A program made the translations under genes and the position numbers. Below are positions 24,540-48,924 of a DNA stretch of 64,000 nucleotides, piece after piece. Origin of the DNA: Oncomelania hupensis (lineage: Eukaryota; Mollusca; Gastropoda; Littorinimorpha; Pomatiopsidae); contig CM072511.1 of assembly GCA_036898135.1 (NCBI GenBank), positions 157,476,494-157,540,493 on the forward strand. The letters run 5' to 3'. Under the pieces are notes generated by a model that did no database searches, was not told the origin of the DNA, and saw only the letters and a list, made by a program, of their open reading frames with translations. Every line of letters begins with the position of its first letter. Positions within the stretch are counted from its first letter, which is position 1.

Positions 24540-25177
24540 TGTTACACTCTGTTCGATGTTGGTGTTTTCTATCAGTATCTGATTCAGCCCCGATGCTTGA
24601 ATTCCTGATAGTTGTGTAACTCAGATTCGTTTATTCGCGCAACCCGTCCAAACAGCGTACAAGTCACAAAGTCGACGTATGAAGTTTTCCACTTTTATTC
24701 AGCACACACCAACAACTGCATACAATTCTCAACTCAAATCAATAACTTTCACAGCAACTCTCCAAATCACTATCAACAACTTTACTCTCTCTCAACAGCA
24801 ATTCGGCACACGATTAAATAACCTCTCTCTTTTCCGGAAGAATTTCGAACAATGTAGAAATGACGTACTGCCACCAATCGAACTAAAGATCGTCATCACT
24901 GACTTACGTCAATACACATTTTCTCTACTTCCGGGAACATTCACGACCTTCGATATCCATCGGGAAAATTCTATCAAGAGTAAACACGCATATCCAGAAG
25001 ATTCTCAAATAATATCGACTAACGCAAATTATCAACGTTATACAAAGCCTCTCCTAACAACAGTGCAAACTCAAATCAAAGGTAAATAAACTCCATTATT
25101 GAATACTTTACAAAACGAAACGATTAGATCTATCTTGCGCGTTTCTGACGTACTACCATTCGCGTTTCAACGTAACA
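24540..25177 (-). repeat. 3' LTR of element A
   Basis: Starts (minus strand) TGTTACGTTGAAACGCG and ends TGTAACA. On the minus strand GTGTGCTGAATAAAAGTGG gives the AATAAA signal. Contains no real gene; the 136-codon open frame on the plus strand is identical in both LTRs and looks incidental. Confidence 0.9.
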
Positions 25178-25192
25178 TAACCCCCCACTCAA
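25178..25192 (-). other. Polypurine tract of element A
   Basis: On the minus strand GAGTGGGGGGTTA lies directly before the 3' LTR TGTTACG, the expected place for plus-strand priming. Confidence 0.65.
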
Positions 25193-25333
25193 GAAGAAAT
25201 TTACCCAATTTCTTTCAACAACGTTGAAACGTAATGCACAAACAATGTACAGAATTAAAACTTACTTCAGACTGTCTCATTTACTGTCAATGTTTACAGT
25301 TCATTCACACAGGGTCAATGTTTCTCCACACAG

Positions 25334-28300
25334 TCAATGTTCTTTCAACCGCAAGGAAACGATGCCCTCGTCAGTTGCGGTCGTCATCGGCCCAGGGTCA
25401 AAGACAGTGATCTTGTGGGCTTTCCTGGAGTCAGTGCATCCTCCGTTGTCTTCCTCTCCCGTGGGATGTCCGACGCAGTCGACGTTGTCAGCTCCCAGAA
25501 TGCATTCGCTGGGTCTCACGGTCAGGTTGGCTTCTGCGGGACGGTGGAACAGCTCCCTCAAGGTCTGCAGATGCTCCTTCCAGGTCTGGGTGTGGACTTC
25601 ATTTTCGACCAAAGTCGTAGAGCCTGGGACATCGCTGAAGCTATGGGGAAATTCGCCCATAAGGTCCTTGAGCTCCAACTTTTGACCTTCCGTCAAGCCT
25701 AGTCCTAGCTTAACGTCATTGATGCCTTCTTTGCTGTGGAAGTCTCCCAGTTCCAACAGTTCTTCGCTGTCAAAGCTGTCGTCGGTCACAGCTGCTGTGG
25801 CTGCGTGCACGGTCTCTGTTGGCCTTTCCACGTACAGCTTAAGGAGGTTGGCGTGGTATATCTTGGAATGCTGGCCGACCTTCACCTTATAGTCGTTGAT
25901 CCCCACCACGGTCTCCACTTCGTACGGGCCTTTCCACTGCATCAGCAACTTATTATGATCAGTAGGTAGCAGCACCAGCACTTTGTTGCCAGGTTTAAAC
26001 TTCCTGTTCACAGCCCTACGATCATAGTAGTGCTTTCCACAGTCCTGGGACTTCTTCAGGTTTTCTCTGGCTATCTCGAGAGTCTGCTCCAGCTTCTCCC
26101 GTAGCTCAAACACGTACTGGTAGCTGTTCTTCACCTCTGGGGTGTCTACTTCTTTCGTCCACAGTTCTTTCAGGATGTGCATCGGCCCTCGGATGGTTCT
26201 TCCGTACAGCAGCTCGAACGGAGAAAAGCCGGTGGACTCCTGCGGTACTTCTCTGTAGGCGAAAAGTAGGGCGTTGATGTAGCGATGCCATTGTCTGGGC
26301 TGCTCGCTGCACAGTTTCTTCAGGGTGGACTTCAGCGTAGCATTGAACTTTTCGACGAGCCCGTTGCACATTGGATGGTAGGGTGTCGTAGTCAAATGCC
26401 GGATGCTCAGCAGTCTGTTGACCTCCTTCATGCAGTCAGAGACGAACTGCGTCCCGAGGTCTGTCAGAATTTCTTCAGGCACTCCAAGCCTACTGAACAT
26501 GTCCACCAGTGCCTCTGCTACAGTTTCAGTGTCAATCTTCTTCAGTGGCACTGCTTCTGGGTACCGAGTCGCATAGTCTACTAAAGTCAGTACCCATCGA
26601 TGACCTTCTTCACTCGGAGGTCTTATTTCGCCGATTAAGTCTAAGGCCACCCTCTTGAAAGGTCGGTCGATCAGAGGCATCCTCTGCATAGGCACTTTCG
26701 GGACCCTTCCTCGAGGTATGGTCTTCTGGCAAATGTCACATGATCGGCAGAAACGGCTGACGTCCGCATGAAGTCCTGGCCAGTAGAACACCGCCTGGAT
26801 TCTGTCCGACGTCTTCTTGATGCCCAGGTGACCTCCCATGATTGAGTCATGCGCTACTTCCATCACCTGGCGCCTTAGGGGTAACGGTACCAATACCTGA
26901 CGTAGTGGTTTCCCTCCGTTGACCCTCGGGTGCTGGAAGATTCGGTACAGGATCTTGGCCTTCACCTCAAAATAGACCGTGCCACTGCCCTTGGTCACGT
27001 GGTCTTGGCGGTTCCTGTACTTGTTTAAAGTGCTATCAGCTTCCTGGAGCTGGATCAGCTTATCTCTGTCCACGATGGCAGCTTTGGAGTTGTCGGCGAC
27101 CTTCAGTGGCGTAGACATCTTGTCTCTCTTGGCCTGGGCCCTGGTAGTAACAGCACTGACGATCTCTGGTCGGCAGGGCTGAGCCGGAGTAACCACATTG
27201 TCCCGTAGCAGCTCTGTAAGGTCTCCATCGGGAAACGGCAATGGATCCTCCTCCACAACTTCGACGCGTTGGGTTGAGGCAGGACTCCACTCTGGATCGG
27301 GGTCGTCGGGTCGTCTCGCGCCGTCGATATTCCCGATCATCAAATCATACAGCGGCTTCTTCAGGCAAACCGCTTCGACTTCGCCTATGTAGAAAGGGGT
27401 GTTGACATGAATCTTCGCAACTGGCGCTCTCACACATTTGCTGTCGGCCATAAGTGTCCATTTTGAATCGCCAGTGAACTGTTCTTTAGCGATTAGGTCT
27501 TCTCTGACGATGACCCCACTGCAGCCAGAGTCTCTTAGAACAGTCACTTCATGATTTCCGACGCGTCCCTTGGAAACAGGCATGTTCTGGACGGTCATAG
27601 CTGCGCTGGCGACGACGGGGATGGATTTTCCGTTGGCAAGGAGAAGTTGGCCATCCTTCATGCACTCTTGCACGTCCGCAGGGGTAGCTGTGCGCTCGGT
27701 TTCACTCGGAAGAATGACGCTCCCGCCGCACACCTGATGGTCAGATCTACTGGTTTGCCGTTGATTGGAGAACCGCCTCTGCCGGTTGCCCGCCGCTGCG
27801 TTGTCCGTACTGCTCCGCTGTCCGCTATTTCTGCTTTGAGGGCAGCTGGCAGCTCTGTGGTCTGTAGCGTTGCAGATAAAACAGCCTCTTGAGTGCCCTT
27901 CCCTGGGAGGAGGCGTGGAGTCCGTCTGCCTCTGGCTCGTCTGGCTCCCTTGGATCTGGTTCCCATGGTTTGCAGTCTTCTGAAAATGTTTCGTCGCGCT
28001 GGGTGGCCCCAGGGTTTTCCCATGAGCGATGAGATATCTTTCAGCAGCTTCAGCAACGTCTTTTAGCGTCTGCAACTTTTGTATTTCCAAGTGGATCGCA
28101 AGGTCCTTAGGGCAGGCGTTGAGTAATTGTTCCCTCACGATCAGCTCATGGAGACTCTCGTAAGTCTTCCCTTTGCCTGATAATTCCACCCACTTGTGTA
28201 GATATGATGACAGGCGCTCCACAAACTGCTTTGGCGTCTCGTCTGAAAAAGGCCGGCATTCACGAAAGCGTTGACGGTAGCCCTTTTCTGTAAAGTTGTA

Positions 28301-28852
28301 GCACTGTAATAGGGCCGCTTTCAAAACGTCGTAGTCTTTGGCGTCATTATTCGACAGTCTACTGTAGACATCGAGCGCCTTCCCCGTCAGTAGTGCGCTG
28401 AGTATGATCGCCCAGTCTTGACGTTGCCAATTGGAGCTTTCAGCGAACCTTTCGAATCTCGCCAGATAACTGTCAATCTGGTCCTTCCCGTCGACGAAAG
28501 CTGGCAATTTTGGAGCCGTATGGTCGTTGGTGACTTGTGGCGCATGCTGATTGTTCTGGATACGCGCCAACTCTAGCTGGTATTGATGCTCAGCTTCTAA
28601 TCGTCTCTCTTCCATCTCTCTTTCTTGACGCCGCTCTTCTCTTTCTTCTCGGCGACGCTGCTCTTCTAATTCTCTTTCTTCACGGCGACGCTGCTCCTCT
28701 ATTTCTCTTTCTTCACGCCGTCGCTCATCTTCTCTTTCTTCACGCTGACGTTGTTCTTCTCTTTCTTGTATTCTCTCCTGAGACTTGACGTACTCCGTCA
28801 GCTGTTTGCCTTTTAGATTCAGTTGCATCCCTTTCTGCCAGAAGTCAGCCAT
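25334..28852 (-). CDS. Gag-protease-integrase polyprotein of element A, RT fragment at C-terminus
   Basis: 1172 residues from ATG 28852. Residues 20-90 are an E/R-rich coiled coil. About 187-280 form a capsid segment resembling the SCAN domain (YRQRF, FVERLSSYLHKWVEL, LIVREQLLNACP). 324-337 is a CX2CX4HX4C zinc knuckle. The protease is at 439-447 with DSG instead of the usual DTG. The integrase has H668, H675, C705, C708 of the HHCC finger and D738, D798, E834 (D-x35-E), then a GPY/F module at 971-1010 (WKGPYEVE). Only then come RT-flanking pieces: 1053-1088 matches the segment just before RT (LKDLMGEFPHSFSDVPG). It jumps straight to the RT thumb (HLQTLRELF, NLTVRPSECILG). The YVDD palm is deleted and RNase H is absent. 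It should package and integrate but cannot copy RNA alone. Confidence 0.88.
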   Translation of the reverse strand: MADFWQKGMQLNLKGKQLTEYVKSQERIQEREEQRQREEREDERRREEREIEEQRRREERELEEQRRREEREERRQEREMEERRLEAEHQYQLELARIQNNQHAPQVTNDHTAPKLPAFVDGKDQIDSYLARFERFAESSNWQRQDWAIILSALLTGKALDVYSRLSNNDAKDYDVLKAALLQCYNFTEKGYRQRFRECRPFSDETPKQFVERLSSYLHKWVELSGKGKTYESLHELIVREQLLNACPKDLAIHLEIQKLQTLKDVAEAAERYLIAHGKTLGPPSATKHFQKTANHGNQIQGSQTSQRQTDSTPPPREGHSRGCFICNATDHRAASCPQSRNSGQRSSTDNAAAGNRQRRFSNQRQTSRSDHQVCGGSVILPSETERTATPADVQECMKDGQLLLANGKSIPVVASAAMTVQNMPVSKGRVGNHEVTVLRDSGCSGVIVREDLIAKEQFTGDSKWTLMADSKCVRAPVAKIHVNTPFYIGEVEAVCLKKPLYDLMIGNIDGARRPDDPDPEWSPASTQRVEVVEEDPLPFPDGDLTELLRDNVVTPAQPCRPEIVSAVTTRAQAKRDKMSTPLKVADNSKAAIVDRDKLIQLQEADSTLNKYRNRQDHVTKGSGTVYFEVKAKILYRIFQHPRVNGGKPLRQVLVPLPLRRQVMEVAHDSIMGGHLGIKKTSDRIQAVFYWPGLHADVSRFCRSCDICQKTIPRGRVPKVPMQRMPLIDRPFKRVALDLIGEIRPPSEEGHRWVLTLVDYATRYPEAVPLKKIDTETVAEALVDMFSRLGVPEEILTDLGTQFVSDCMKEVNRLLSIRHLTTTPYHPMCNGLVEKFNATLKSTLKKLCSEQPRQWHRYINALLFAYREVPQESTGFSPFELLYGRTIRGPMHILKELWTKEVDTPEVKNSYQYVFELREKLEQTLEIARENLKKSQDCGKHYYDRRAVNRKFKPGNKVLVLLPTDHNKLLMQWKGPYEVETVVGINDYKVKVGQHSKIYHANLLKLYVERPTETVHAATAAVTDDSFDSEELLELGDFHSKEGINDVKLGLGLTEGQKLELKDLMGEFPHSFSDVPGSTTLVENEVHTQTWKEHLQTLRELFHRPAEANLTVRPSECILGADNVDCVGHPTGEEDNGGCTDSRKAHKITVFDPGPMTTATDEGIVSLRLKEH

Positions 28853-28860
28853 CTTGATGC

Positions 28861-28985
28861 TTCTGGAAAGTTCTTTTCTGGAAAGTTCTTTTTCTAGAAA
28901 GTTCTTGACTGTAGAGTTCTTTTTTTTCTGGAAAGTTCTTGACTGTGCTGTACCTTTCTAGACTGTTCTAGAACAGCACGCTTTC
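28861..28985. promoter_or_regulatory. Cluster of heat-shock-element-like sites in element A leader
   Basis: TTCTGGAAAGTTC fits the HSE pattern nTTCnnGAAnnTTCn exactly. It recurs at about 28861, 28876, 28891 (with TA in place of TG) and 28926; TTCTAGAAC follows at 28976. The cluster lies directly upstream of the gag ATG, between the 5' LTR and the coding region. Function is inferred from sequence only. Confidence 0.5.
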
Positions 28986-29382
28986 TGCAGTAGCGCTGAT
29001 GCTTGTCACTAGTCGCCTTCGTTGACGCAGGCCCCGCTGTCCTCGTCGTATGCGACGCTGCACCACGCTGGTGTTGATGTATACGCTCCTGTGCTGAAGT
29101 AGACTCGACGTCCGTACGTCGCTCTCTCTAATACTGGCGATGTAGCTCCGAGACTGTCCCTCGACGTAGTCCTGCGGCAGCCACGTAGTCCCGACTGGTT
29201 GTTCGCTCACGAAGCAACTCTTCAGTGACTACACGCCCTTGCAGTCAACCCGAACCTATCGGTGATGTAGTCCCAGTATGTTGGCCCCTCTCGACGCAAC
29301 TCGTTGGCGGCTACCCTCGATGACTGCCTCTCGTAACGTTGACTCGCTTGTTGTAGCAGTTGAACCCTTGGCTATGGCGTGA

Positions 29383-29400
29383 ATCGCGGCTTGACCCCCA
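29383..29400 (-). other. Primer-binding site of element A
   Basis: Three bases after the 5' LTR the minus strand reads TGGGGGTCAAGCCGCGATTC. TGG pairs with a tRNA CCA end, and the complement GAATC..CCCCCA has the layout of a tRNA T-arm plus acceptor with discriminator C. I cannot name the tRNA. Confidence 0.55.
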
Positions 29401-29403
29401 AAA

Positions 29404-30041
29404 TGTTACACTCTGTTCGATGTTGGTGTTTTCTATCAGTATCTGATTCAGCCCCGATGCTTGAATTCCTGATAGTTGTGTAACTCAGATTCGTTTATTC
29501 GCGCAACCCGTCCAAACAGCGTACAAGTCACAAAGTCGACGTATGAAGTTTTCCACTTTTATTCAGCACACACCAACAACTGCATACAATTCTCAACTCA
29601 AATCAATAACTTTCACAGCAACTCTCCAAATCACTATCAACAACTTTACTCTCTCTCAACAGCAATTCGGCACACGATTAAATAACCTCTCTCTTTTCCG
29701 GAAGAATTTCGAACAATGTAGAAATGACGTACTGCCACCAATCGAACTAAAGATCGTCATCACTGACTTACGTCAATACACATTTTCTCTACTTCCGGGA
29801 ACATTCACGACCTTCGATATCCATCGGGAAAATTCTATCAAGAGTAAACACGCATATCCAGAAGATTCTCAAATAATATCGACTAACGCAAATTATCAAC
29901 GTTATACAAAGCCTCTCCTAACAACAGTGCAAACTCAAATCAAAGGTAAATAAACTCCATTATTGAATACTTTACAAAACGAAACGATTAGATCTATCTT
30001 GCGCGTTTCTGACGTACTACCATTCGCGTTTCAACGTAACA
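29404..30041 (-). repeat. 5' LTR of element A
   Basis: Identical by eye to 24540-25177. It provides promoter and start for the minus-strand transcript. Confidence 0.9.

Positions 30042-30135
<94 letters not shown>
30042..30135. repeat. (TATC)n microsatellite, right half of the array split by element A
   Basis: Continuous with the short TATC run left of 24540 once element A is removed. Confidence 0.95.
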
Positions 30136-30139
30136 CCCA

Positions 30140-30635
30140 CTGTCGCTGTCTTCCTCATTTACTCTTTCCTATTCCTGCTCTGTCCTATCACTCTGCTATA
30201 CTATCTTCTTCTTCGCTAGATCAATGACCTACCTTTTTTCTTGAAAACTCTTCCTGGACAAGACTCCTTGTTTGTGTATGAGGTCTGTTGGATCAGCTTG
30301 GGAGTGTTGGACGCTTTCTTCCGGGTGGTCACTAGGGCTTCCTATGATTGTATTATTTAGCAGTATAGGCATTTTATATGTATATGTTTTGTTAATAATT
30401 TATAATGATGTTTGTATTCTATTTTGTTTTTGTAACCGGGGGTTCGAGTAGTTGGGGTAAAGCCTCAGCCGTCCCCTGCGTGGGATGTCTTTATTGTAAA
30501 GTGACTGGCCGGTGGAGGGCGTTCAATTTTCCCACTAGGGTTGTTTCAGCAGATCTTTTATGCGGATCTGGGGTTGTCCGGTCCTGATTTGGCTCGGAAG
30601 AGTCCGCTGGATCTAAAGCAACAATCAATCAATCA
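30140..30635 (+). repeat. Dispersed repeat D, copy 4
   Basis: Same block order as copies 2 and 3, ending GTCCGCTGGATCTAAAGCAA and an AATC tandem tail. Confidence 0.7.
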
Positions 30636-30640
30636 ATCAA

Positions 30641-30706
30641 TCTATAACTCTCTCTCTCTCTCTCTCTCTCTCCCTCTCTCCCTCTCTCTCTTTCTCTCTC
30701 TCTCTC
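30641..30706. repeat. (CT)n microsatellite
   Basis: CT units with CCCT interruptions. Confidence 0.95.
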
Positions 30707-31319
30707 TAATTATATATTAAACTGCTATTATATCCCTGTCAAAACGGCAAACCATGACATGTTGCTTGGCTTGTGTGCTCTTTTCATTCGGTTGGTGGTA
30801 TTGGTTTGCAAACCTATTCAAGGCAGCTTCTCATATATTTGTCTTTTTTATTCACTGTTAACATGCTGGTTGCTTTCAGTACACAGTCTTAGGAAGAAAA
30901 AACCAACAACCATGCATGCACACGTAATAAAACCCCAGCACTCACACACACTGAAAGACGGGCCCTTTTGGTTTTTTTTAAACTGACATGCATAGCAATG
31001 TGAGTCTATTTATTCACCCCAACATTTTTTTCCAAGATTTTTGCAAATCTGTGCGAGATAAACCCAAAACTGTCCAAAAATGACATTTAAAAAAAAAAAA
31101 GTCCCTCTCTCTGTGCAAACTCTTGCAAGTGGATTAATATCTTAGAACCAATTTCAACTATCGCAATCAAACTTGGTAAGAGGGAGTATACCCAGGAGAC
31201 CTCGTAAATGATCAGTGAATGAATGACCTCACTTCAAGGCCAAGGTCTCATTCACAGGGTCAACAAATGTTTGTCAAGAAATGACAATGTTTCACGATTA
31301 CGTTATTACGATGCGCTCA
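30707..31319. other. Non-coding stretch, nothing recognised
   Basis: No conserved coding signal or known repeat seen. Confidence 0.4.
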
Positions 31320-31321
31320 AA

Positions 31322-31430
31322 GGCAGCAAGTTGGCACCTCGGGCGGCTTGAGTTAGATCCTGTATCGGCAAGCGCCTTGAGTCGCCAAGTACGGCGAAAT
31401 ATGTGCGCTATACAAATCCTCAATAATAAT

Positions 31431-31484
<54 letters not shown>
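31322..31484 (+). mobile_element. SINE-like family S copy with (AAT)n tail
   Basis: GCACCTCGGGCGGCTTGAGT, TAGATCCTGTATCGGCAAGC, GCCTTGAGTCGCC and GTGCGCTATACAAATCC, then an AAT array. Related copies at 35822, 38030 (minus), 48927 and 51540. Confidence 0.6.
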
Positions 31485-31487
<3 letters not shown>

Positions 31488-31884
31488 TTTTTAGGTCGGT
31501 TCCCGTCTTACTCTTTCTTTGGCGCTATGCTTTACGATGACTAACTTCGTAGTTTGAAACCTTTTTGTCTCCCTCCCGTGTTCAACTCGTCAGCAGCCAC
31601 TTTCTAAACAAAACTTTGTTCAAAACCACCTAGCCTGCCACCCTAGATTGTAAAACTTTCTATTTTCTATGAATTCTCTTTAATTAAAAAAAAGAAGGTT
31701 TCTTCCCTCTTCTATTGCTAGGCAGCCAACGTTGTAGATATTTGTTTCGCATGGAGATTTGATGTATGTTTTATTTTTCTCTGCTGATTTTTTTTTAGAA
31801 AGCCCGGTGTAACATCGTCAATGTTCCTAGTATTTTATTTGGGCTGGGAGTGACTGGGAGCATTCTGATTGGTCGACGCATTAC

Positions 31885-32025
31885 AAAATTCGACGCATGC
31901 GCACAGTGCTATCGTAGTCTTAGTAAAGATTAGGGTTAGAGTCAGGGTTAGGGGTTAGGGTTACGACGCCTAAGAACATTGTGAAAAAGCCGGCCCGACT
32001 TGACCTGGCGCATGCGCAAAGGCGC
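31885..32025. promoter_or_regulatory. CpG-containing patch with two GCATGCGC motifs and TTAGGG units
   Basis: GACGCATGCGCACAG (31889) and GGCGCATGCGCAAAG (32007) resemble NRF1 sites. Between them AGGGTTAGGGGTTAGGGTTA is telomere-like. It could be an old promoter, but no gene follows that I can confirm. Confidence 0.3.
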
Positions 32026-32581: not shown

Positions 32582-32655
32582 CCACCGCGGTAGTGGTAGA
32601 GCGTGGTAGAGCGTTCGCCTGACCAGGTTCAAAACCCATGGTTGGCAAAAAGAAA
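32582..32655 (+). mobile_element. Degenerate tRNA-like SINE fragment
   Basis: GTGGTAGAGCGTTCGCCTGA and AGGTTCAAAACCC resemble A and B boxes. A 10-bp internal repeat (GGTAGAGCGT) disrupts it. Confidence 0.4.
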
Positions 32656-36070: not shown

Positions 36071-36199
36071 TCGACCTGCGCCAAAATAAGACATTTAGGT
36101 CGATGGGGCGGCGTGACTCCATTGTCCGCGGCGTTTGACCGTGCACTTGATTTGGCAAGTTGAAGTCTTGAGCTGCTAGAGTTTGCTCCTGATTTCTTT

Positions 36200-37328
36200 C
36201 AGCACCAACAACACCTGTATCATGTGTTCGTAGACTTCAAGAAGGCTTTTGATCGAGGCTGGCAAGCAGCTCTGGGGGCAACCATGAGAGTGTACAACAT
36301 CAGTCCAAAAATTATTCAAATCATCAAAATCCTTTATGACAAGGCTACCAGTGCGGTCCTCCATAACAGAGCCATCGGAAACTGGTTCAGAACAACAATC
36401 GGTGTGCATCCAGAAGGCCTACTCTCTCCAACCCTCTTCAACATCTTCCTAGAGCGCATCATGTCAGATGCCCTTGCAAATCACGAAGGTACAGTCAGCA
36501 TAGGGGGTAGAGCAATCTCCAACCTTCGTTTTGCAGATGACATTGATGGATTGGCTGGAGAGGAACAAGAACTTGAACAGCTGGTACAGAGGCTTTACAC
36601 CACCTCCAGAGCCTATGGAATGGAAATAAGTGCAGAGAAGACCAAAATGATGACCATCAACACCAATGGCATCAACACGGACATCAAAGTTCAAGGCCAA
36701 TCCCTTAACACAGTGCATAGCTTCAAATATTTAGGAGCCATTGTATCAGACAATGGATCCCGACAGGAAGTCCTCTCCAGGATCGCACAAACAACTGCTG
36801 CCCTGGCAAGGTTGAAGCCCATTTGGAAAGACAAGACCATCAGTCTACATTCCAGGGTAAGGCTGCTGCGCTCCCTTGTCATCTCCATCTTTATATACGC
36901 TTGCAAAACATGGACCCTCACAGCAGATCTCCAACGAAGAATACAAAGCATGGAGATGAGGTGCTACAGCAGACTTCTGGGCATTTCCTATACCCAGCAC
37001 ATCACCAACGACGAAGTCCGACAGATCATCACACAAGCCATTGGACAACACGATGACCTGCTCGCAGTGGTAAAGAAACGGAAACTCAGATGATAAGGCC
37101 ACGTCACCAGATCATCAGGCCTTGCAAAGACAAGGCACAGTGCAAGGAGTTAGAAGAAGAGGGAGACCGAAAAAGAGGTGGGAGGACAACATTTGAGAAT
37201 GGACTGGCTTGACACTGAGCGAAGCCATCAGGGTTGCTGAGGACAAATAAAAATGGAGTACGCTGGTTAAACGATTATCTGTGGTGCTCCAACGACACCA
37301 GAGTTATGGGATAGGATATGATAGGATT
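36200..37328 (+). mobile_element. RTE-like LINE copy 5, 5'-truncated
   Basis: Begins in the RT palm at AGCACCAACAACACC and ends GGGATAGGATATGATAGGAT. The frame is open from 36224 (a GTG codon, not a true start) to 37093: VDFKKAFDR, LLSPTLFNIFLERIM, LRFADDIDG, SFKYLGAIVSDN and the C-terminal domain to KRKLR. A stop (TGA) follows where the other copies have the GHVTR motif. It carries GVHPEG where related copies have GVRQGC. Confidence 0.88.
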
Positions 37329-38945: not shown

Positions 38946-40731
38946 CTGTGGGTTCGGGCACTGAATAGAATAGACCCAACGTTTCCCGGAGTGTCGTAAG
39001 AGGCGACTAACAGGGGTGATGTCTGCACGGTATCACTGGGCAAAAGTCTTCTACACAGAAGGTCGGCTCCACTTGTAGAGAGTAAACAGCACAGTGCACC
39101 AGACTGAAGTTCGACGTGGACAAACTTAAAGACCCGGATGTGGCAGAAATATTCCAAGCAACATTTGAAGTAAAATTTGCACCACTGCTCATTTTGGGAG
39201 CTGGTGAAGTAGGTGTCAACACCATGTCCCCGCCACCTTGGACTCAGCTGTGACAGATGGCAAGTACCGCCCAAAAAAGAAACCGTGGATCACACCTAAA
39301 CTTTTGGACCTGTGTGACAAACGAAGAGTTATGAACAAGAAAAAGAACACCTCACAGGGAACTGTTACCTAACAACAAATCAACAATGACATCCGAAAAG
39401 GCATACGCATTGCAAAGGAGAACTGGGTAGAAAATCAGTGCCAGGAAATAGAAGACAATCTGAACAAGAACATCAGTAACATCATTGAACTAGACTGTGA
39501 AGCGGCTGACAAGTGTTAAACATCCCAAGGTCTCTCCGATCCAAAGCAAATCTGGCATATGCCTTATAGAAGAACAATAAGTCTTGGATAGATGACAGAG
39601 TACTTCTCTGACCTTTACAACCACACACCAAACACAGACCAATCAGTTCTAACATGTCCCCAGAACGGAAAAGAAGAAGAAATCCTCCGAATTCTCCGAG
39701 AAGAAGTTGAGGCAGCGGTGCAATCGCTGAAAAAGGGAAGTCAGCGGGAGTGGACAACATACCCGCGGAACTGCTTTAAGCTGGAGGAGAAGCCATGATT
39801 AACGCCCTCACCATTATCTGTAACAAGAGCTGGCAGAGTGGGGAGTGGACCACACCATGGACCCAGTCGATTGTCATCACTCTTCCCAAAAAGGGTAACC
39901 TTCAGGAGTGTGAAACCTACCGCACCACCAGCCTCATTACCCAACCCAGCCAAGTCCTCCTGAAAATAATAATCAACAGGTTGAAATCCCAAGCTGAACA
40001 AATCATAGCTGAGGAACAATTAGGATTCAGGGCAGGGCGAAATACCACTGAGCATATTTTCAACCTCAGAATAATCTGCGAGAAATACCTACAGCAACAA
40101 CATCTATATCATGTGCTTGTAGACTTCAAGAAAGTACTTGACCGAGTCTGGCATGCAGCTCTGTGGGCAGCCATGAGAGTGTACAACAACAGCCCTAACA
40201 TTATTGAAGTCATCAAAAGCCTTCCAGTGCAGTCCTCCACAACAGCGCCATCGGGAACTGGTTCAGTACAACTATCGGCGTGCGTCAAGGATGACTACTC
40301 TCTCCAACACTCTTCAACATCATCCTGGAGCGCATCATGTCAGAAGCCCTTGCAGATCATGAAGGCACAGTCAGCATAGGGGGAAGAGCAATCTCCAACC
40401 TTCGTTTTGCGGATGACATTGATAAAATGCCTGGAGAGGAACAAGAACTTGAACAGCTCGTACAGAGGCATCACCTCCAGAGCATTAGGAATAGAAAAAA
40501 AGTGCAGAGAAGACCAAAATGATGACCAACAACAACAATGGCATTAACACGGACATCAAAGTCCAATGCCAATCCCTCCACACAGTGCATAGCTTCAAAT
40601 ATTAGGAGTCCTTGTATCAGACAATGGGTCCAGACAGGAAGTCCTCTCCAGGGTCGCACGATCAAGTGCTGCCCATACAGTGTTGAAGTCCTTTTGGAAC
40701 GACAGGACCATCAGTCTAAATTCCAAGGTAA
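38946..40731 (+). mobile_element. RTE-like LINE copy 6, has 5' end, endonuclease deleted, split by Harbinger
   Basis: Starts with the family 5' end CTGTGGGTTCGGGCACTGAA and GTCGTAAGAGGCGACTAACA. At about 39062 it jumps from the 5' region to the end of the endonuclease (CGGCTCCACTTG), losing most of that domain. It then covers linker, RT (FADDID near 40410) and SFKYLGVL. It stops at 40731 where the Harbinger element begins. Many frameshifts. Confidence 0.85.
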
Positions 40732-40978
40732 AGGTCCGTTTATACAGAGCGGGAACGCGAACGCGGTTTTTCGTCCTGGAATATTTTAGTCATTTGTAGA
40801 GGAACCGTTCAAATAGAGTGCGAACGCGAACAATGTTTTGTTCGCGCGAACGACTGCCTTGATTGCCCCCAGAGCGAATTTTCGTAGAAGTTCGCGCGGC
40901 TGTTTTGCTATCAGCCAATCAGCAAGTATTTCCCTTGCATCATTTCCACAAATAGAAACTTGTACGCCTGACCGGACA

Positions 40979-42510
40979 ATGGACAAGACAGAAGCCATGA
41001 TTCTTGAAATTGAGAAGAATCATGTACTGTATGACAAAGCAGACAAAGATTACAGAGACATCATGAAAAAAGAGACATATGGAAAGCAATTGGACAGAGA
41101 GTCGGACTGACAGGTATGTGATTGAAATTAATTTTATTTTACCTGTGTCAACAATGTTATGGAACTGTAAAAAAAATGTCTCCACGACTTTATTAATTAA
41201 ACATGTTTTAACTTTCATTTCAGCAGTCTTCATAATGACACCCTTTTAGCTCTGACAGAAATATATATTGAAATTATGATATTATAAAGTCTGCGTCTCA
41301 CACTGAAAGATCTGATACACAGGGAGTACAATAAACACTGCATTAATGAATACAGACAATCTGTCTGTCTGTCTGTTTGTCTATCTGTTCCTGTCATTAA
41401 AGTCTAGGCAGAGAGCAGTAAATGATATTATCTTCTTTGGGGACATTGACTGTTGTCACATTTTGTTTAAAACGTCCTCTGCCGGCGTGGGTGCATGTCT
41501 ATGTCCTAATTAGCATGTCCACAGCATGCATCCATTTGCCATGTGACTGCTCCTGCTGGGGAGACAAAGTAGTTTTTGAATTGTTCTCGCACCTCAAGGG
41601 CTGTATCCCCGGGTCGATGTCCTTCTCGCCTCGGAGGCCTCAATACACCATCGTGGATGTCTTCTTCCTTGTTATCAACGTCATCCCTGTGTGCACCGAC
41701 CTCGTTTTCACCACACAGCATGTTATGTAAAACTATGGTAGCTTTCACAACACAGTCCACATTTCCAGGTGACGGAGGGAGTTTTCTGTGATATAACCTC
41801 CAACGATTTGCCAGTATGCCAAACGCGTTTTCGGAGATGCTCCTTGCTCGCGATAATCTGTAATTATAAATCCGCTTTGCATCATTCAGATCAGAACCTG
41901 GGCACGGACGCATCAAATTGCTCATGAGCGGGAAAACTTCATCTCCTACTATTACATGAGGACAGGGTTGATCATCCACGATCAATGATTTATCATCCGG
42001 TATAGCAAGCGTTTTGTTTTGCATCTTTCGACACAATGCACTGTTTCTGAAAATGCCAGAATCACAATTTGACCCGCATGAACCAATATCCACAAATGTA
42101 AAGCGATACCAATAATCAACGAGGGCCAGAAGTACGATAGAGAAAGATTTTTTGTAATTGAAGTATGCACTTCCTGAACAGGGAGGCGCCTGAATCAACA
42201 CGTGCACCTAAAGCACCAATACAGTTTGGGAACTGCCATCGTTCACCAAATCCATTTTCATTTTTCCGCCACAGTTCTTGAGTTGATCAGGTAGATGAAT
42301 TGGCTATAGTTGATTCCAAATCGCCTCGCATACTTCACGTACGATCATCGCGACGGTGGCAACCCCCACGCGGTAACTGAATGCTATAGTCTTGTAGGAA
42401 TCCCACGTTGTCAAGAACCTGAAAGCAAAACAAATTATTAATACAGATCTACATTTTTGTTTCAGGTAAAGAAATAGAAACTCGTTGGAAGAATGTGTGT
42501 GAAAAAATGG
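40979..42510 (+). pseudogene. MADF-domain protein of the Harbinger element, two exons, truncated
   Basis: Exon 1 is 40979-41113: ATG, then IEKNHVLYDKADKDYRD. One base is out of frame in the A-run at 41066-41071; beyond it the other frame reads IWKAIGQRVGLTG. Donor CAG then GTATGT at 41114. Exon 2 starts at 42466 after TTTTGTTTCAG and reads KEIETRWKNVCEKM. Across the splice this gives the classical MADF core (LYD..DYRD..W..IG..V......RWKN). MADF/Myb-like proteins of Harbinger elements help the transposase bind DNA and enter the nucleus. The 1352-nt intron contains the antisense transposase gene. Exon 2 is cut at about 42505 by a LINE tail. Confidence 0.75.
41506..42418 (-). pseudogene. HARBI1-like PIF/Harbinger transposase, frameshifted
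   Basis: An acceptor (GCTTTCAG) at 42419 opens an exon reading RFLTTWDSYKTIAFSYRVGV, then VREVCEAIWNQL and a stop. After a frame change it reads ERWQFPNCIGAL. From 42207 one frame is open: CSGSAYFNYKKSFSIVLLAL, FVDIGSCGSNCDSGIF, VIVGDEVFPL, SISENAFGILANRWRL and IVLHNML, the order of DDE_Tnp_4 transposases. The second D (in GDEVFPL) and E (in SENAFG) are present. The first D, normally in GAIDGKH, is lost at the frameshift. The enzyme would cut and paste the element. At least one stop and two frame breaks; dead. Its upstream exon lies beyond the truncation. Confidence 0.82.
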
Positions 42511-42581
42511 AGTACGCTGGTTAAACGATCATCTGTGGAGCCCCAGCGACTTCGGAGCTACGGGATAGGATATGATAGGAT
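42503..42581 (+). mobile_element. RTE-like LINE, isolated 3' tail truncating the Harbinger element
   Basis: AAAAATGGAGTACGCTGGTT, ATCATCTGTGGAGCCCC, ACGGGATAGGATATGATAGG. The joint overlaps Harbinger exon 2 by a shared AAAAATGG. Confidence 0.8.
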
Positions 42582-42603
42582 TCCCCTTTTCCTCCCTCCA
42601 CGG

Positions 42604-43680
42604 TGTCACAAACTGGCTAGTTTTAACTCTGCTTGTTGACTATTTAGCCATGTGTAGTAATTGTAACAGTGAGAAGTTAGACTATTACACAGCAGCAATT
42701 AAATTACACAGCAGACCACACACCGCGAGCCCGACCCACGCTAGCGCAGTGAGTCAGCACTTGAGCTTTGAATCGGACCGTTTTATCCAATCAGAAGCAG
42801 GCTCAGTGGGTAGAGCAGTTTTGAATGTGTCAAAACCTAAGACAGTTTGAATGAGTCGTGTGTGAGACGAGGTAGAGTCTACATCTCCACAGCTAGAGAA
42901 ATCTCTACACTCTTAGACCAGGAAGCAGGACTTTGAAATCTTAGAATTCTCTCAAGTCATCACGGGCCTGAACTTGTCAAACAGACGAGCTATCCCGAGC
43001 TATCCCGAGCTATCCTGTGCGTCCCACTCCACAGAAACGACTATAGTTGGTCGAGGAGACTCTACCGCACAAGACGGAAGGAGCTACCCGAAGAAACACC
43101 CTGTCAGACCCCACAGCGTGGCAAGGGAACCCAACTACACAACGACAAAGGTGTACCAGAAGCTACCTCACAGAAGGACTTCGAACACCCCACACATGAG
43201 TTAAGTGCATAAGGCGAAGGTGCACTTAAACTGATCATAACAGGACCACAGTAGTCCAACTCGTCAGAAACTGTAAAACGGACCACAGTAGTCCAAATCT
43301 ACATGAAATATTATAGCAAGTGCCCGAGGAAGATATAACAGCTGCCTAGACTATCAGCGATCGAACTATTAGCAGTGACTGAGACTTTTTAAGTTAGATT
43401 AGTACTTAGAGAATCTTGTATAGAGTAGAAGAAATAAATGTGTGATTTTAACTGTTATCAAGTGGCTGGACTACATATGATTCATAGCCGTGTGAAAGCT
43501 AGTGTGACAGTATTCTTTTACCATTTTTCTATCTATTTCTGTACCCCAACCTTAACACAGAACGAGCTAAACAAATAAATTTATTAAAGTAATTCATAGG
43601 GTGACTTACTAGCAGTTCCCACCGAATAAACGTGATGGTCCATAATTCCATTGTGCAGAGCCCATAAACCCCACGTGACA
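42604..43680 (+). repeat. 5' LTR of element B
   Basis: Contains three GAGCTATCC units near 42987-43016 and an AATAAA at about 43433 (GAAGAAATAAATGTGTG). It starts 16 bp after the LINE tail that cut the Harbinger element. Confidence 0.92.
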
Positions 43681-43687
43681 CTTTAAT

Positions 43688-43705
43688 TGGCGAGCCTGCC
43701 AGGAT
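43688..43705 (+). other. Primer-binding site of element B
   Basis: TGGCGAGCCTGCCAGGAT begins seven bases after the 5' LTR. TGG pairs with a tRNA CCA end. The tRNA is not identified. Confidence 0.5.
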
Positions 43706-44049
43706 CTGTGTATAATAGGAATTGGGTATAACCGGATCTAAGTACAATAAAATTAGATAACAGTAGAAGTAGAATAACTTAGAATAGTGTAAGGGTATAA
43801 CACTGATCAGTTGTGGTGCACTATTCTTTACTTAAAAACTTTTTTGCTTCAATTATTTTTGTGCCTGTATGTTGCATTGTTCTTTTGCAGGTTTTGCTTA
43901 AGTAACTGTTGTATGCCATTTGACTTTTTGTTTTATTCTATTATTGATTACGAATTTGATTGTCTTTGCATTGTTTTTATTGAATTGCAATATTGCTAGT
44001 GTTTTGGTATTCCACGTGATTCAGAGGTTGTTCATAGACACTTTTGGCA

Positions 44050-47000
44050 ATGTCGGACCCAGTGGCCTTGAGATTGCGTTTCAAGGAATTGGGAGAAGCT
44101 TTACACTTAGCAGGGGGAGACCTAATTGCGTATATAAATGCAGAGGTAGAGAAACAGGAGGCTAAGGCAGAGAGAGCAGCAGAGAGAGAACAGAAGAAAC
44201 TCGAAGCAGAACAGAGAAAAGCAGAATTAGAAGCAGAGCAAAAGAAATTAGAACTAGAAGCAGAGCAGAAGAAACTAGCATTAGAAGCAGAGCAGAAGAA
44301 ATTAGAAGCAGAGCAGAAGAAATTAGAGGCAGAGAGAGAAACGAGGAAATTAGAGCTAGAAGCAGAACAGAAGAAGGTAGCAGCCGAGAGAGATGCAGAA
44401 GTTAGGAGATGGGAGTATGAGCGGGCAGAAAAAGAAAAAGAGAGGGAAGAAAAGGAAAAAGAAAGACAGCATGAGTTAGAGCTAAGAAGATTGGGATCAG
44501 GAGCTTCAAGTTCTTCCTCAACCCCTCCCCACTCAGATCAGCTAGAAGTAGCATCCAACCCCGTACAAGGAATGTCATTTCCACTGGGAACATTCAATGA
44601 GAGAGAGGAAGGCCTAGATCTCTATCTGACTAGGTTTGAGCGTCTAGCAACAGAGTACAAACTAGATCCCACTCATTGGTCTTTTAAGCTTAGTCAAGGG
44701 CTTAGAGGAAAGGCTTATGACATCTACAGTAAGCTACCGACTGACAGAGTGACTGACTATCACAAAGTAAAAGAGGCACTCCTAACGGGATTCGAACTGA
44801 CAGGAGAATGCTATCGGCAAAAATTCCGCACCAATCGGAGAGTGAAAGGAGAGAGCTATGCGCAGTTCGCGGATCGGTTGTCCACAACGCTGGATAAGTG
44901 GATTAGCCAGTCAGCCACGGCTAAGACGTATGATGGACTGACAGAACTGTTAGTATGGGAACAGCTACGGGAAACCATGACCCCCGAGCTGAGGACATTC
45001 TCAGTAGAACAGGGCGCGGAAAGACTGGAAGATCTGGTCAAGGTCGCAGATAGGTACGTGGCCGCACACGGAGAAGCCAAGAGCTTCAGGCGAGACCTAA
45101 AGCCTAACGGGAAAGAGGCACAGAAACGAAGCCCTACCCGGGAAGAGCGCACCGCGAATAAGCCGAATAACCCCAGACCTGGGCAGAATAAAGGACCCAA
45201 CACGGAATTCGGGAAAAGAGGTCCCGCAGAACAGAGACGGTATTGTTCGTTCTGCAACAGAAACAATCACTCCACCGCAGAATGTTTCAAGTTGGCCGCA
45301 CAACGTAGGGAAGAGCGCGAAAGCCGGCCAGCGCACAGAGTTCTAACTCAAAGTAGCGGTAACAAGCCACACACTATCGGAGATCACCCATCGGTGACAG
45401 ACACGGTCAAGGTCAACGGAAAAGAAGCGAACTGTCTGTATGACACAGGTCTATCATACGACGCGATAGTTAGCGAATCTCTTGTATCGCGCGCGGACTT
45501 GACAGACAAGACAGTCGATTTACAAGGAGCAGACTTGACGAAACCGACGACTACTTGCCCAATAGCATGGATCGAAGTAGAGAGTAGGTACGTCACAGGA
45601 CGAATCCAAGCAGCTGTTTTACAGAAACCCCTGTATGATCTAGTGCTAGGTTGTAGGTATGTGTTCTTAGGCACGCCCCCTAAAACTGTAGAGATAGCTG
45701 CAGTGCAAACCAGGGCCCAAGCTAAAACCCAACCACCCCAGCCCGAGTTCGCTCCGAACCCAGGACTCGAAGAGATCAAAACAGCACAGAAAGAAGACAC
45801 CTCGATAGCGAAGTGCTTCCAGAAGCTACCCAAGGCGCACACACCCCCGCACAAGGGAGACTTCTACATGGAAGAGGGAGTTCTACATCGACAAGGAGAT
45901 GGAGATCACACCCAACTAGTACTACCAGCCACCCTTCGAGCCCAAGTACTAGAATTAGGCCACAGCATGCCACTCAGCGGACACATGGGAATTGGAGCCA
46001 CAGTGCAGAGAATCAGCGCACACTACTATTGGCCAGGAATCACGGAGGATGTCAAGCGCTACGTGAAATCTTGCCACCAAGGTCAACGATATTCCCCGCG
46101 ACATCACACCGTACCAGTTACCTTAGGACCATCAGTAGTAGTCGGCGTACCATTCCAGCAAGTCTCAGTAGACATAGTAGGACCACTGCCCATGACCAAG
46201 AAGAGGAACAGATTTCTACTCACACTCGTCGACGCATGTACGATGTGGTGCGAAGCAGTCCCGTTGCCAGCGATCGACACCAAGAAGATTGCAGATGCAC
46301 TCATCGCCATCTTTACCAGAGTCGGATTCCCGGACAGCATTAGAACGGACAACGGATCTCAGTTCACCGGCCGCCCGATGCAAGACGTGTTCGAGTTGAT
46401 ACAAGTTCATCACATTCGCACACCACCATACCACCCCGCCAGCAACGGACAAGTAGAAAGACTGAATGGAACCCTTCTCACCATACTCAGGAAAGTCGCC
46501 GACGACAATCCAGAAGCGTGGGACACCTACGTGAATGCGGCACTGTTCGCATACAGAGAAACGCCCCATGCAGCCACAGGCTACACCCCGTCAACCTTGC
46601 TATTCGGCAGACCTCTAGCAGGACCGCTAGAAGCCCTACGCAGAAGTTGGACGGAGGCCAAGATAGACGACACACCAAGAGGTGCCACCACGTACGTCGC
46701 AGACCTGCAGGAAACACTCAAAGCAACGTGGAAGAAAGCTGGTGAAGCACTGAAGAAGGCAAGAGCCCGTCAGGCGAAGTACTACAACCGCCACGCGAAG
46801 GACAGAGAACTGCAAGTCGGCGATCAAGTGCTACTCTTACTTCCAAGTGGAACCAACAAGCTGGACATCGCTTGGAGAGGACCGTACCGGGTGACTGCCA
46901 AGAAATCCAAGACAGTCTACCAAGTAGAGGTGAACGGGAGAGCCCGATACCACCACATTAATCGCCTCAAGAAGTACACGGACCGACCAGCGACCCCCAG

Positions 47001-47694
47001 CACACACACGTGGATGGCCATCGCCATCGCGGAAGAAGTTCATCCCCAACTACAACAGCATCGCCGTACCACTGACAAATGGAACCCGGAAAATCGCCCC
47101 GGACAAAGTAGTATGGACAGCCGAATGCGAGACAGCATTCCAAACACTCAAAGACAGAATGACATCGGCGCCAGTACTCCACCTACCCGATTACTCGGCG
47201 CCAGTACTCCACCTACCCGATTTGACTCAGCCATTCGTTCTACGCACCGACGCAAGCGACTTAGGCCTCGGAGCAGTACTGCTACAGCGCGACCCCAAGA
47301 ATGCAGAGAAGTTATTCCCTGTCGCCTACGCCAGCAGAACACTGAGACCCGCCGACACACACTACGCCACGTCGGAGAAAGAATGTCTTGGACTAGTCTG
47401 GGCCATACAGAAGTTTCAACTCTACCTGTATGGGACCCACTTCACAGTTCAGGTGGACCACCAACCACTATCGTTCCTGGCAGCCTCCAAGTCTTTGAAC
47501 TCTCGCCTGATGCGATGGGCACTCACCCTTCAGGCATACTCATTCCAAATCGAGTACATCCCCGGCAAAGAGAACCACGGAGCCGACTACCTCAGTCGCC
47601 ATCTCGTGGAGGACACAGCAGCTGTCGCCCACCCAACACAACTAAGGGCCACAGCACCAGAATTCGTCCCCGCCCAGTAATACCCTGTCACTAG
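44050..47694 (+). CDS. Gag-protease-integrase polyprotein of element B
   Basis: ATG 44050. The N-terminal part (44150-44490) is a long coiled coil built of EAEQKKLE-type heptads. Capsid with SCAN-like core (YRQKF, FADRLSTTLDKWI, LLVWEQLRE) lies at about 44797-45075. Zinc knuckle CX2CX4HX4C is at 45245-45286. Protease LYDTGLSYDAIV is near 45435. The integrase HHCC finger lies at 45960-46085, with its last cysteine changed (CHQG). Catalytic D 46171, D 46348 and E 46456 are spaced D-x35-E. The GPY/F module (WRGPYRVT) is near 46875. Conserved coding stops at about 47020. From there to 47694 the frame is only an out-of-phase reading of the RNase H region. It can in principle make particles and integrase but no RT. 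Confidence 0.88.
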   Translation: MSDPVALRLRFKELGEALHLAGGDLIAYINAEVEKQEAKAERAAEREQKKLEAEQRKAELEAEQKKLELEAEQKKLALEAEQKKLEAEQKKLEAERETRKLELEAEQKKVAAERDAEVRRWEYERAEKEKEREEKEKERQHELELRRLGSGASSSSSTPPHSDQLEVASNPVQGMSFPLGTFNEREEGLDLYLTRFERLATEYKLDPTHWSFKLSQGLRGKAYDIYSKLPTDRVTDYHKVKEALLTGFELTGECYRQKFRTNRRVKGESYAQFADRLSTTLDKWISQSATAKTYDGLTELLVWEQLRETMTPELRTFSVEQGAERLEDLVKVADRYVAAHGEAKSFRRDLKPNGKEAQKRSPTREERTANKPNNPRPGQNKGPNTEFGKRGPAEQRRYCSFCNRNNHSTAECFKLAAQRREERESRPAHRVLTQSSGNKPHTIGDHPSVTDTVKVNGKEANCLYDTGLSYDAIVSESLVSRADLTDKTVDLQGADLTKPTTTCPIAWIEVESRYVTGRIQAAVLQKPLYDLVLGCRYVFLGTPPKTVEIAAVQTRAQAKTQPPQPEFAPNPGLEEIKTAQKEDTSIAKCFQKLPKAHTPPHKGDFYMEEGVLHRQGDGDHTQLVLPATLRAQVLELGHSMPLSGHMGIGATVQRISAHYYWPGITEDVKRYVKSCHQGQRYSPRHHTVPVTLGPSVVVGVPFQQVSVDIVGPLPMTKKRNRFLLTLVDACTMWCEAVPLPAIDTKKIADALIAIFTRVGFPDSIRTDNGSQFTGRPMQDVFELIQVHHIRTPPYHPASNGQVERLNGTLLTILRKVADDNPEAWDTYVNAALFAYRETPHAATGYTPSTLLFGRPLAGPLEALRRSWTEAKIDDTPRGATTYVADLQETLKATWKKAGEALKKARARQAKYYNRHAKDRELQVGDQVLLLLPSGTNKLDIAWRGPYRVTAKKSKTVYQVEVNGRARYHHINRLKKYTDRPATPSTHTWMAIAIAEEVHPQLQQHRRTTDKWNPENRPGQSSMDSRMRDSIPNTQRQNDIGASTPPTRLLGASTPPTRFDSAIRSTHRRKRLRPRSSTATARPQECREVIPCRLRQQNTETRRHTLRHVGERMSWTSLGHTEVSTLPVWDPLHSSGGPPTTIVPGSLQVFELSPDAMGTHPSGILIPNRVHPRQREPRSRLPQSPSRGGHSSCRPPNTTKGHSTRIRPRPVIPCH
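47036..47680 (+). pseudogene. RT connection and RNase H remnant of element B
   Basis: In the frame ending at TAA 47680, KFIPNYNSIAVPLTN is the RT/RNase H connection. Then TSAPVLHLPD is doubled by a 30-bp tandem duplication (47165-47222). It continues with FVLRTDASDLGLGAVLLQ, SEKECLGLVWAIQKFQLYLY, VQVDHQPLSFL and IPGKENHGADYLSR, which carry the RNase H D, E and D residues. It lies downstream of integrase and out of frame with it; the RT fingers and palm that should precede it are deleted at about 47020-47036. Confidence 0.88.
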
Positions 47695-47847
47695 TGTCCA
47701 TAGCTACCTGGCACAGCATTGCAGCTCAGGTAGAGCAACTTACTTAGTTTGTAAATAGGACCCTAGGATAGTGCAGTGTTAAACTAGGCTCTGTAGTAGA
47801 AAAAGGTCGAATCCAGTAGTCATCGCCTTTTTTCAGTTGAGGGAGCC

Positions 47848-48924
47848 TGTCACAAACTGGCTAGTTTTAACTCTGCTTGTTGACTATTTAGCCATGTGTA
47901 GTAATTGTAACAGTGAGAAGTTAGACTATTACACAGCAGCAATTAAATTACACAGCAGACCACACACCGCGAGCCCGACCCACGCTAGCGCAGTGAGTCA
48001 GCACTTGAGCTTTGAATCGGACCGTTTTATCCAATCAGAAGCAGGCTCAGTGGGTAGAGCAGTTTTGAATGTGTCAAAACCTAAGACAGTTTGAATGAGT
48101 CGTGTGTGAGACGAGGTAGAGTCTACATCTCCACAGCTAGAGAAATCTCTACACTCTTAGACCAGGAAGCAGGACTTTGAAATCTTAGAATTCTCTCAAG
48201 TCATCACGGGCCTGAACTTGTCAAACAGACGAGCTATCCCGAGCTATCCCGAGCTATCCTGTGCGTCCCACTCCACAGAAACGACTATAGTTGGTCGAGG
48301 AGACTCTACCGCACAAGACGGAAGGAGCTACCCGAAGAAACACCCTGTCAGACCCCACAGCGTGGCAAGGGAACCCAACTACACAACGACAAAGGTGTAC
48401 CAGAAGCTACCTCACAGAAGGACTTCGAACACCCCACACATGAGTTAAGTGCATAAGGCGAAGGTGCACTTAAACTGATCATAACAGGACCACAGTAATC
48501 CAACTCGTCAGAAACTGTAAAACGGACCACAGTAGTCCAAATCTACATGAAATATTATAGCAAGTGCCCGAGGAAGATATAACAGCTGCCTAGACTATCA
48601 GCGATCGAACTATTAGCAGTGACTGAGACTTTTTAAGTTAGATTAGTACTTAGAGAATCTTGTATAGAGTAGAAGAAATAAATGTGTGATTTTAACTGTT
48701 ATCAAGTGGCTGGACTACATATGATTCATAGCCGTGTGAAAGCTAGTGTGACAGTATTCTTTTACCATTTTTCTATCTATTTCTGTACCCCAACCTTAAC
48801 ACAGAACGAGCTAAACAAATAAATTTATTAAAGTAATTCATAGGGTGACTTACTAGCAGTTCCCACCGAATAAACGTGAGGGTCCATAATTCCATTGTGC
48901 AGAGCCCATAAACCCCACGTGACA
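47848..48924 (+). repeat. 3' LTR of element B
   Basis: Matches 42604-43680 except about two substitutions. Confidence 0.92.

What the first reader, a model, noticed from the sequence alone, without database searches (positions are those of the whole stretch)
24540..48924. Two LTR elements with Gag-PR-integrase-RT/RNase H order, a Gmr1-like plan with SCAN-like capsid
In both elements A and B the integrase (HHCC, D-D-x35-E, GPY/F) comes directly after protease, and the RT or RNase H remnants come after integrase. Ty3/gypsy normally has RT before integrase; the Gmr1-like group has the reversed order. Their capsid segments resemble the SCAN domain, which established work derives from Gmr1-like Gag. 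If the host is a protostome, this extends a group best known from deuterostomes.
Basis: partly seen in the sequence, partly recalled or inferred. Interest (0 to 1): 0.8.

Follow-up and report, generated by a model that had tools for sequence, protein, structure and literature searches.

The report
Integrase-first snail retrotransposons lacking reverse transcriptase
Two young jumping elements in what is probably a sea-snail genome have the unusual integrase-before-reverse-transcriptase layout, have both lost the reverse transcriptase itself, and yet belong to dispersed families that kept spreading, most likely by borrowing the enzyme from complete relatives.

Summary
A (24540-30041, minus) and B (42604-48924, plus) are LTR elements with Gag (SCAN-like capsid), protease, integrase, then RT/RNase H remnants. 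The order is native: of 120 listed relatives of A, 92 have integrase before RT, none the reverse, 28 no long RT. Gmr1-like derivation is well supported, but no named Gmr1 reference was available. Protostome Gmr1-like elements are already in print (crustaceans, annelid). The stronger result: both lack RT yet are not lone wrecks. A's deletion junction occurs at 22 genome places. Of 20 fetched, 19 show both LTRs (18 at 0-0.5% divergence, one 1.4%), 15 of 15 with both flanks in view carry exact 5-bp duplications, and 17 have frames of at least 1150 aa. Gag-PR-integrase dN/dS is 0.125; RT/RH scraps are near neutral. Two RT-bearing copies lie inside the same diversity and linkage decays within hundreds of bases, so the forms recombine. 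B's junction is in 40 of 40 scored places; its frame-shifted RNase H is also constrained. Best reading: RT-less semi-autonomous subfamilies moved by RT supplied in trans. B's RT-bearing parent was not found.

The parts
24540..25177 (-). Element A, 3' LTR (638 bp), flanked by CTATC
   Evidence: identical to 29404-30041
25178..25196 (-). Element A polypurine tract region (GAGTGGGGGG)
   Evidence: sequence
25334..28957 (-). Element A open frame, 1207 aa: Gag with SCAN-like capsid and CCHC, protease (DSG), integrase, then RT/RH scraps
28019..28279 (-). A SCAN-like capsid segment (aa 227-313)
   Evidence: PF02023 E 9e-11, above cut-off; PDB matches to SCAN of ZNF24, ZNF42, ZNF174, PEG3 not significant, E 0.02-0.35
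26372..26890 (-). A integrase H2C2 and catalytic core (aa 690-862)
   Evidence: PF17921, PF00665; Ty3 integrase 7q5b E 1e-26
25334..25650 (-). A scrambled RT/RH scraps; first deletion junction at about 25597, between AGTCCAC repeats of RT-bearing copies
   Evidence: junction at 22 genome places
29374..29403 (-). A primer-binding-site region (TGGGGGTCAAGCC..); tRNA not identified
   Evidence: sequence
29404..30041 (-). Element A, 5' LTR (638 bp)
42604..43680 (+). Element B, 5' LTR (1077 bp), preceded by CACGG
   Evidence: 2 differences to 3' LTR
43681..43711 (+). B primer-binding-site region (TGGCGAGCCTGCC..); tRNA not identified
   Evidence: sequence
44038..47694 (+). Element B open frame, 1218 aa: Gag with SCAN-like capsid and CCHC, protease (DTG), integrase (last zinc Cys is Gly); beyond about aa 1000 it runs out of frame over RNase H
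44806..45075 (+). B SCAN-like capsid segment (aa 257-346)
   Evidence: PF02023 E 3e-9
46990..47040 (+). B deletion junction: integrase tail joined to the end of RT, shifting the frame
   Evidence: 40 of 40 scored places carry it
47033..47680 (+). B RNase H segment in the shifted frame, open and constrained
   Evidence: PF17917 E 1e-36; dN/dS 0.062 among 20 copies
47848..48924 (+). Element B, 3' LTR (1077 bp), followed by CACGG

Best explanation
A and B are young insertions of two RT-less subfamilies of Gmr1-like (integrase-first, SCAN-capsid) Ty3/gypsy elements. RT, and in A also RNase H, was lost by internal deletion, in A with template-jump-like scrambling. Because integrase precedes RT in this group, the loss cuts off the end of the polyprotein and leaves Gag, protease and integrase whole. 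The elements replicate with RT supplied in trans by RT-bearing relatives whose RNA and Gag-Pol enter the same particles; copy-choice recombination there keeps RT-less and RT-bearing copies in one gene pool. Shown: structure, shared junctions, LTR pairs and target duplications (A family), constraint, recombination. Inferred: trans supply, shared particles, that each RT-less element's own Gag-PR-integrase is used, and for B the identity of the RT donor.
For: Junction of A at 22 places including A, 94-100% identical over 161 bp; all 20 fetched copies (of the other 21) align through all three tail joins; 19 of 20 with both LTRs in the stretch, 18 of these at 0-0.47% LTR divergence and one at 1.42%; 15 of 15 with both flanks in view with exact 5-bp duplications; 17 of 20 with frames of at least 1150 aa. 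The tail differs by 4.6% on average between copies while LTR pairs differ by about 0.2%, so the form has gone through many rounds. dN/dS Gag-PR-INT 0.125 (bootstrap 0.098-0.157), integrase core 0.025, scraps 0.63 (0.33-1.27); private changes 80 nonsynonymous to 113 synonymous in Gag-PR-INT versus 21 to 8 in the scraps, Fisher p 0.002. RT-bearing relatives with RT and RNase H after integrase and 3' LTRs 84% and 91% identical to A's (L069, L072). Linkage r2 falls from 0.31 to 0.05 with distance among the 21 RT-less copies, and RT-bearing L073 and L074 fall inside RT-less diversity. B: junction in 40 of 40 scored of 1622 candidates; in 20 copies the integrase stretch (aa 481-985) lies in one frame in 14 and the RNase H stretch in 18; constraint 0.093 and 0.062.
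Against: Because RT-less and RT-bearing copies recombine, the constraint in Gag-PR-INT may have been earned in RT-bearing copies. The scrambled tail also occurs in RT-core-bearing L070 and L071, so part of the tail's divergence may be older than the RT loss or imported. No RNA, protein or mobilisation data. Only 4 of 10 half matches of the A junction were looked at; of the two with RT and RNase H, the pieces read have disturbed frames. B's own RT-bearing parent was not found: a guessed pattern had 0 matches and the RT search returned another family. 6 of 20 B copies have a broken integrase frame.
Confidence: 0.75

Rival explanations
1. Recurrent spliced retrocopies: RT is removed as an intron from an RT-bearing RNA and the spliced RNA is reverse-transcribed, giving the same junction again and again without an RT-less lineage.
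For: B's integrase and RNase H are both constrained although RT is absent. Four Littorina proteins on four contigs share one RT-less junction, though these may be gene-model introns.
Against: A's boundaries lie in an AGTCCAC repeat where no placement gives GT...AG (alignments, read by eye); A's tail has two further out-of-order joins shared by all 20 fetched copies and seen in RT-core-bearing L070/L071; the scraps evolve near neutrally.
Confidence: 0.12
2. Constraint borrowed by recombination: RT-less copies are pure parasites; their Gag-PR-integrase looks conserved only because it is continually copied from RT-bearing elements.
For: RT-bearing Gag-PR-INT lies inside RT-less diversity and linkage decays within hundreds of bases.
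Against: Private changes of RT-less copies are also constrained (N/S 0.71 against a neutral expectation of 2.89) with no stops beside 193 counted changes; 17 of 20 frames are open. Imported tracts could still explain part of this.
Confidence: 0.4
3. Assembly artefact or local rearrangement: RT was lost only in the assembly or only here.
For: Both window elements lack the same domain.
Against: 22 and at least 40 dispersed places share the junctions; for A they have their own flanks and target duplications.
Confidence: 0.02
4. Ordinary dead-on-arrival deletions with no further history.
For: Internal deletions are common in LTR elements (recalled).
Against: Shared junctions, young LTR pairs and open frames.
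Confidence: 0.03

Closest known systems
Gmr1-like Ty3/gypsy elements (Goodwin and Poulter 2002, recalled; PMC3587641, PMC8220671, passages)
   Same: integrase upstream of RT, SCAN-like Gag, Ty3-type integrase
   Different: A and B lack RT; A also lacks RNase H
IAP 1Delta1 proviruses of mouse (PMC6466679, passages)
   Different: IAP loses part of gag and pol; here Gag, protease and integrase stay whole
Semi-autonomous RLG_Sabrina_SA and partner-dependent RLG_Quinta of wheat (PMC9744471, PMC11302176, passages)
   Same: keep Gag (Sabrina_SA also protease) and rely on partners for RT
   Different: they lack integrase as well; here integrase is kept and its core is the most constrained part of A
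Competent and defective ERVK[2-1-LTR] of cattle (PMC10924933, passages)
   Same: four-gamete evidence of recombination between complete and defective forms, taken as co-packaging
   Different: defective cattle elements have no intact frames

Membership tests
Gmr1-like Ty3/gypsy | integrase before RT in intact relatives | tested here: met
   A-search 92 integrase-first, 0 RT-first, 28 without RT over 120 aa, of 120; B-search 9 integrase-first, 11 RT-first, 4 neither (one of these, P0141, has a short RT match before integrase), of 24; the RT-first ones are the more distant hits and lack SCAN; same-genome pieces L069, L072, L075, L076
Gmr1-like Ty3/gypsy | integrase and RT group apart from ordinary gypsy | tested here: inconclusive
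   one side of a branch, integrase 85/82 (31 vs 11 rows) and 89/85 (19 vs 10), RT 100/98 (15 vs 8); few references, long branches, no named Gmr1 row; two of the rows labelled integrase-first (P0091, P0121) have no RT in the model
Gmr1-like Ty3/gypsy | SCAN-like capsid | tested here: met
   PF02023 above cut-off in A and B; blast hit to P0001's SCAN in 103 of 144 proteins, in none of the 11 RT-first
Gmr1-like Ty3/gypsy | own RT and RNase H | tested here: not met
   A: neither domain; B: RNase H only. Hence filed as RT-less derivatives, not as full members
LTR retrotransposon | paired LTRs, TG..CA ends, 5-bp target duplication | tested here: met
Semi-autonomous LTR element | keeps some proteins, lacks others, still spreads | tested here: met
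   for A; for B (no LTR pairs or flanks of other B copies were read). That the kept proteins work is inferred from constraint
Semi-autonomous LTR element | mobilised by a named partner | not testable with these tools
   RT-bearing relatives found for A; use in trans not shown

The most novel reading that the evidence does not exclude
Integrase-first order makes RT dispensable as a detachable tail: independent RT-less lineages arose more than once (A, B, perhaps Littorina), live for long as element-encoded Gag-protease-integrase particles (B with its own RNase H from a shifted frame) under selection for their own products, and obtain RT from other elements, forming a shared, recombining multi-part replication system.
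Probability: 0.3. Interest if true: 0.8.

Novelty: new variant of a known kind. Interest (0 to 1): 0.58.

Why it matters
The non-autonomous LTR elements in the papers seen here lost most coding capacity or kept only Gag or Gag-protease (or, in IAP 1Delta1, a fused Gag-Pol). Families that drop RT but keep integrase conserved, in the gypsy group where integrase precedes RT, would let one test whether domain order decides which functions can be shared in trans, and whether integrase must act in cis. The strong linkage decay gives an invertebrate example of retroelements behaving as a recombining population.

Tried and rejected
Novelty by host phylum: rejected. RT loss as an intron in A: rejected by the boundaries; not testable in B. 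DNA search with A's integrase: 0 candidates; the tool says that very common words are skipped, so this is uninformative. Finding B's RT-bearing parent: the RT protein search scored 150 of 18769 candidates, all 72-73% identical to the query; two were sampled and belong to an integrase-first family of which B is only a relative; a pattern for a B-like RT end had 0 matches, but the pattern was a guess. Counting B copies with and without RT by patterns did not complete. In the A-copy alignment in-frame stops appeared before aa 65 in some of the 20 copies; that repeat-rich region was left out of the selection tests, which start at aa 180. A first count of B frames (19 of 20 integrase, 20 of 20 RNase H) looked only at stops in aligned codons; the stricter one-frame count is 14 and 18 of 20 and replaces it. 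The first integrase tree had very long RT-first branches; a second without three of them and with two same-genome rows agreed. For those trees I chose by hand 29 and 17 of the 133 listed proteins that are not RT-first, and 11 and 8 of the 11 that are.

That no RT-less Gmr1-like family is in print rests only on the listings, where none was seen. The SCAN-origin paper PMC3209298 is not held.

Full report
Anatomy. Element A lies on the minus strand between identical 638-bp LTRs (24540-25177, 29404-30041); element B on the plus strand between 1077-bp LTRs with two differences (42604-43680, 47848-48924), with target duplications CTATC, in a microsatellite, and CACGG. Each has one long frame of about 1210 aa with SCAN-like capsid, zinc knuckle, protease and integrase. 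A's integrase matches Ty3 integrase through 360 of the 401 residues given; the capsid's PDB matches to SCAN domains are not significant (E 0.02-0.35), so the SCAN claim rests on Pfam. B has lost one zinc ligand of its integrase, a change seen in B alone of 20 copies, and a 30-base gap against B in 18 of 19 other copies fits the 30-bp tandem duplication visible in B's RNase H.

Order. A search of 5.8 billion proteins with A's frame gave 1637 relatives, of which 120 were listed, led by Littorina saxatilis (76% over the whole query); other named ones are Pomacea, Babylonia, corals, an acorn worm and an isopod record flagged as contamination. Of the 120, 92 have integrase before RT, none the reverse, and 28 show no RT over 120 aa, some perhaps truncated models. 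With B, 24 relatives: 9 integrase-first, 11 RT-first, 4 neither; the RT-first ones are the more distant and lack SCAN. The eight loci cut for the best of 150 scored integrase-profile matches in the same genome are RT-first, seven of them near copies of one another, so both plans coexist there. Trees put integrase-first proteins, A and B on one side (85/82; 89/85; RT 100/98). This supports Gmr1-like derivation; no named Gmr1 sequence was available, so formal membership is not tested, and lack of RT fails a defining feature for the two elements themselves.

RT is gone. Against P0001, whose order is SCAN 211, H2C2 666, rve 741, RVT_1 1150-1307, RNase H 1398-1501, A runs to about 1103, jumps to 1263-1310, then back to about 1157-1182, then to about 1407-1422 (weak), and ends; B jumps from about 1022 to 1346 with a frame shift. 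A's first join lies in an AGTCCAC repeat of RT-bearing copies, as template jumping would give.

A is one of many. The 161-bp junction is found at 22 places at 94-100% identity; 10 further matches, two of them neighbours, cover only one part of it. Twenty of the other 21 were fetched. All 20 align across the three joins. Nineteen show both LTRs in the stretch taken, four of these with one LTR cut short by the stretch; 9 pairs are identical, 9 differ by 0.16-0.47%, one by 1.42%. All 15 with both flanks in view, plus A, show exact 5-bp duplications. Seventeen of 20 hold frames of at least 1150 aa; L036, L037 and L044 do not. Four of the ten partial matches were read downstream: two carry RT with YWDD and RNase H and a 3' LTR like A's (84% and 91%); two carry the RT core together with the same scrambled tail, which suggests that the tail arose first and the RT core was lost later.

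Selection and recombination. Among 21 copies dN/dS is 0.22 in capsid, 0.13 in protease, 0.025 in the integrase core, 0.125 overall (median pairwise dS 0.12), and 0.63 with an interval including 1 in the scraps, where shifted frames give 0.91 and 0.55; over Gag-PR-INT shifted frames give 1.7 and 2.1. Private changes show the same contrast. But Gag-PR-integrase of the two RT-bearing copies lies inside the RT-less diversity (mean distance about 0.036 in both comparisons), and among RT-less copies four-gamete pairs rise from 18% to 48% and r2 falls from 0.31 to 0.05 with distance. So the two forms exchange sequence, and the constraint cannot be credited to RT-less copies alone. The tail differs by 4.6% on average, and even the 161 bp around the junction by up to 6%, far more than the LTR pairs; some of this may be imported, since RT-core-bearing copies share the tail, but it still points to an RT-less form much older than its insertions.

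B. Its junction is in all 40 places scored, of 1622 first-look candidates. In 20 copies (B and 19 others, about 3.2 kb each) the integrase stretch lies in one frame in 14 and RNase H in 18; dN/dS is 0.093 and 0.062; linkage decays within about 50-150 bases, on 58 sites. Why RNase H without RT should stay constrained is open: use with borrowed RT, recombination with RT-bearing kin, or splicing. An RT query found an abundant integrase-first family in the same genome with many frames of 1440-1491 aa among the 150 scored; two sampled 1.6-kb pieces show integrase tail, RT, RNase H in one frame, but they are relatives of B, not its parent.

Host. Closeness to Littorina suggests a caenogastropod snail (inference).

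Literature. Gmr1-like elements in protostomes: PMC3587641, PMC8220671 (passages); PMC8556966 lists Gmr1 among clades present in several phyla (passages). The mollusc survey PMC6238403 mentions Gmr1 once, in its background, and reports 21 Gypsy clades (passages). SCAN derived from Gmr1-like Gag: PMC3424704 (passages). Precedents for partly coding or trans-mobilised elements: PMC9744471, PMC5738225, PMC11302176, PMC6466679, PMC10924933 (passages).

Noticed in passing
20019-20873 (+), 36164-37093 (+), 39780-40379 (+), 51866-52354 (-): Frames resembling a non-LTR retrotransposon reverse transcriptase (resemblance recalled; the first three share repeats at 81-95%).
   Followed up: no
23876-24263 and 30239-30627: A sits between two copies, about 90-93% identical, of a further dispersed repeat; more distant copies at 21399-22348.
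   Followed up: no
41506-42207 (-): Open frame of 233 aa that looks like a Harbinger-type nuclease (resemblance recalled).
   Followed up: no
P0002, P0003, P0004, P0049 (Littorina saxatilis): Four predicted proteins on four contigs share one RT-less junction, different from A's; P0005 has another. Could be real RT-less families or gene-model introns.
   Followed up: partly
L075, L076: An abundant integrase-first family with many long open frames (18769 first-look candidates for its RT, 150 scored).
   Followed up: partly
L070, L071: Copies with the RT core kept but the same scrambled tail as A: likely intermediates.
   Followed up: partly
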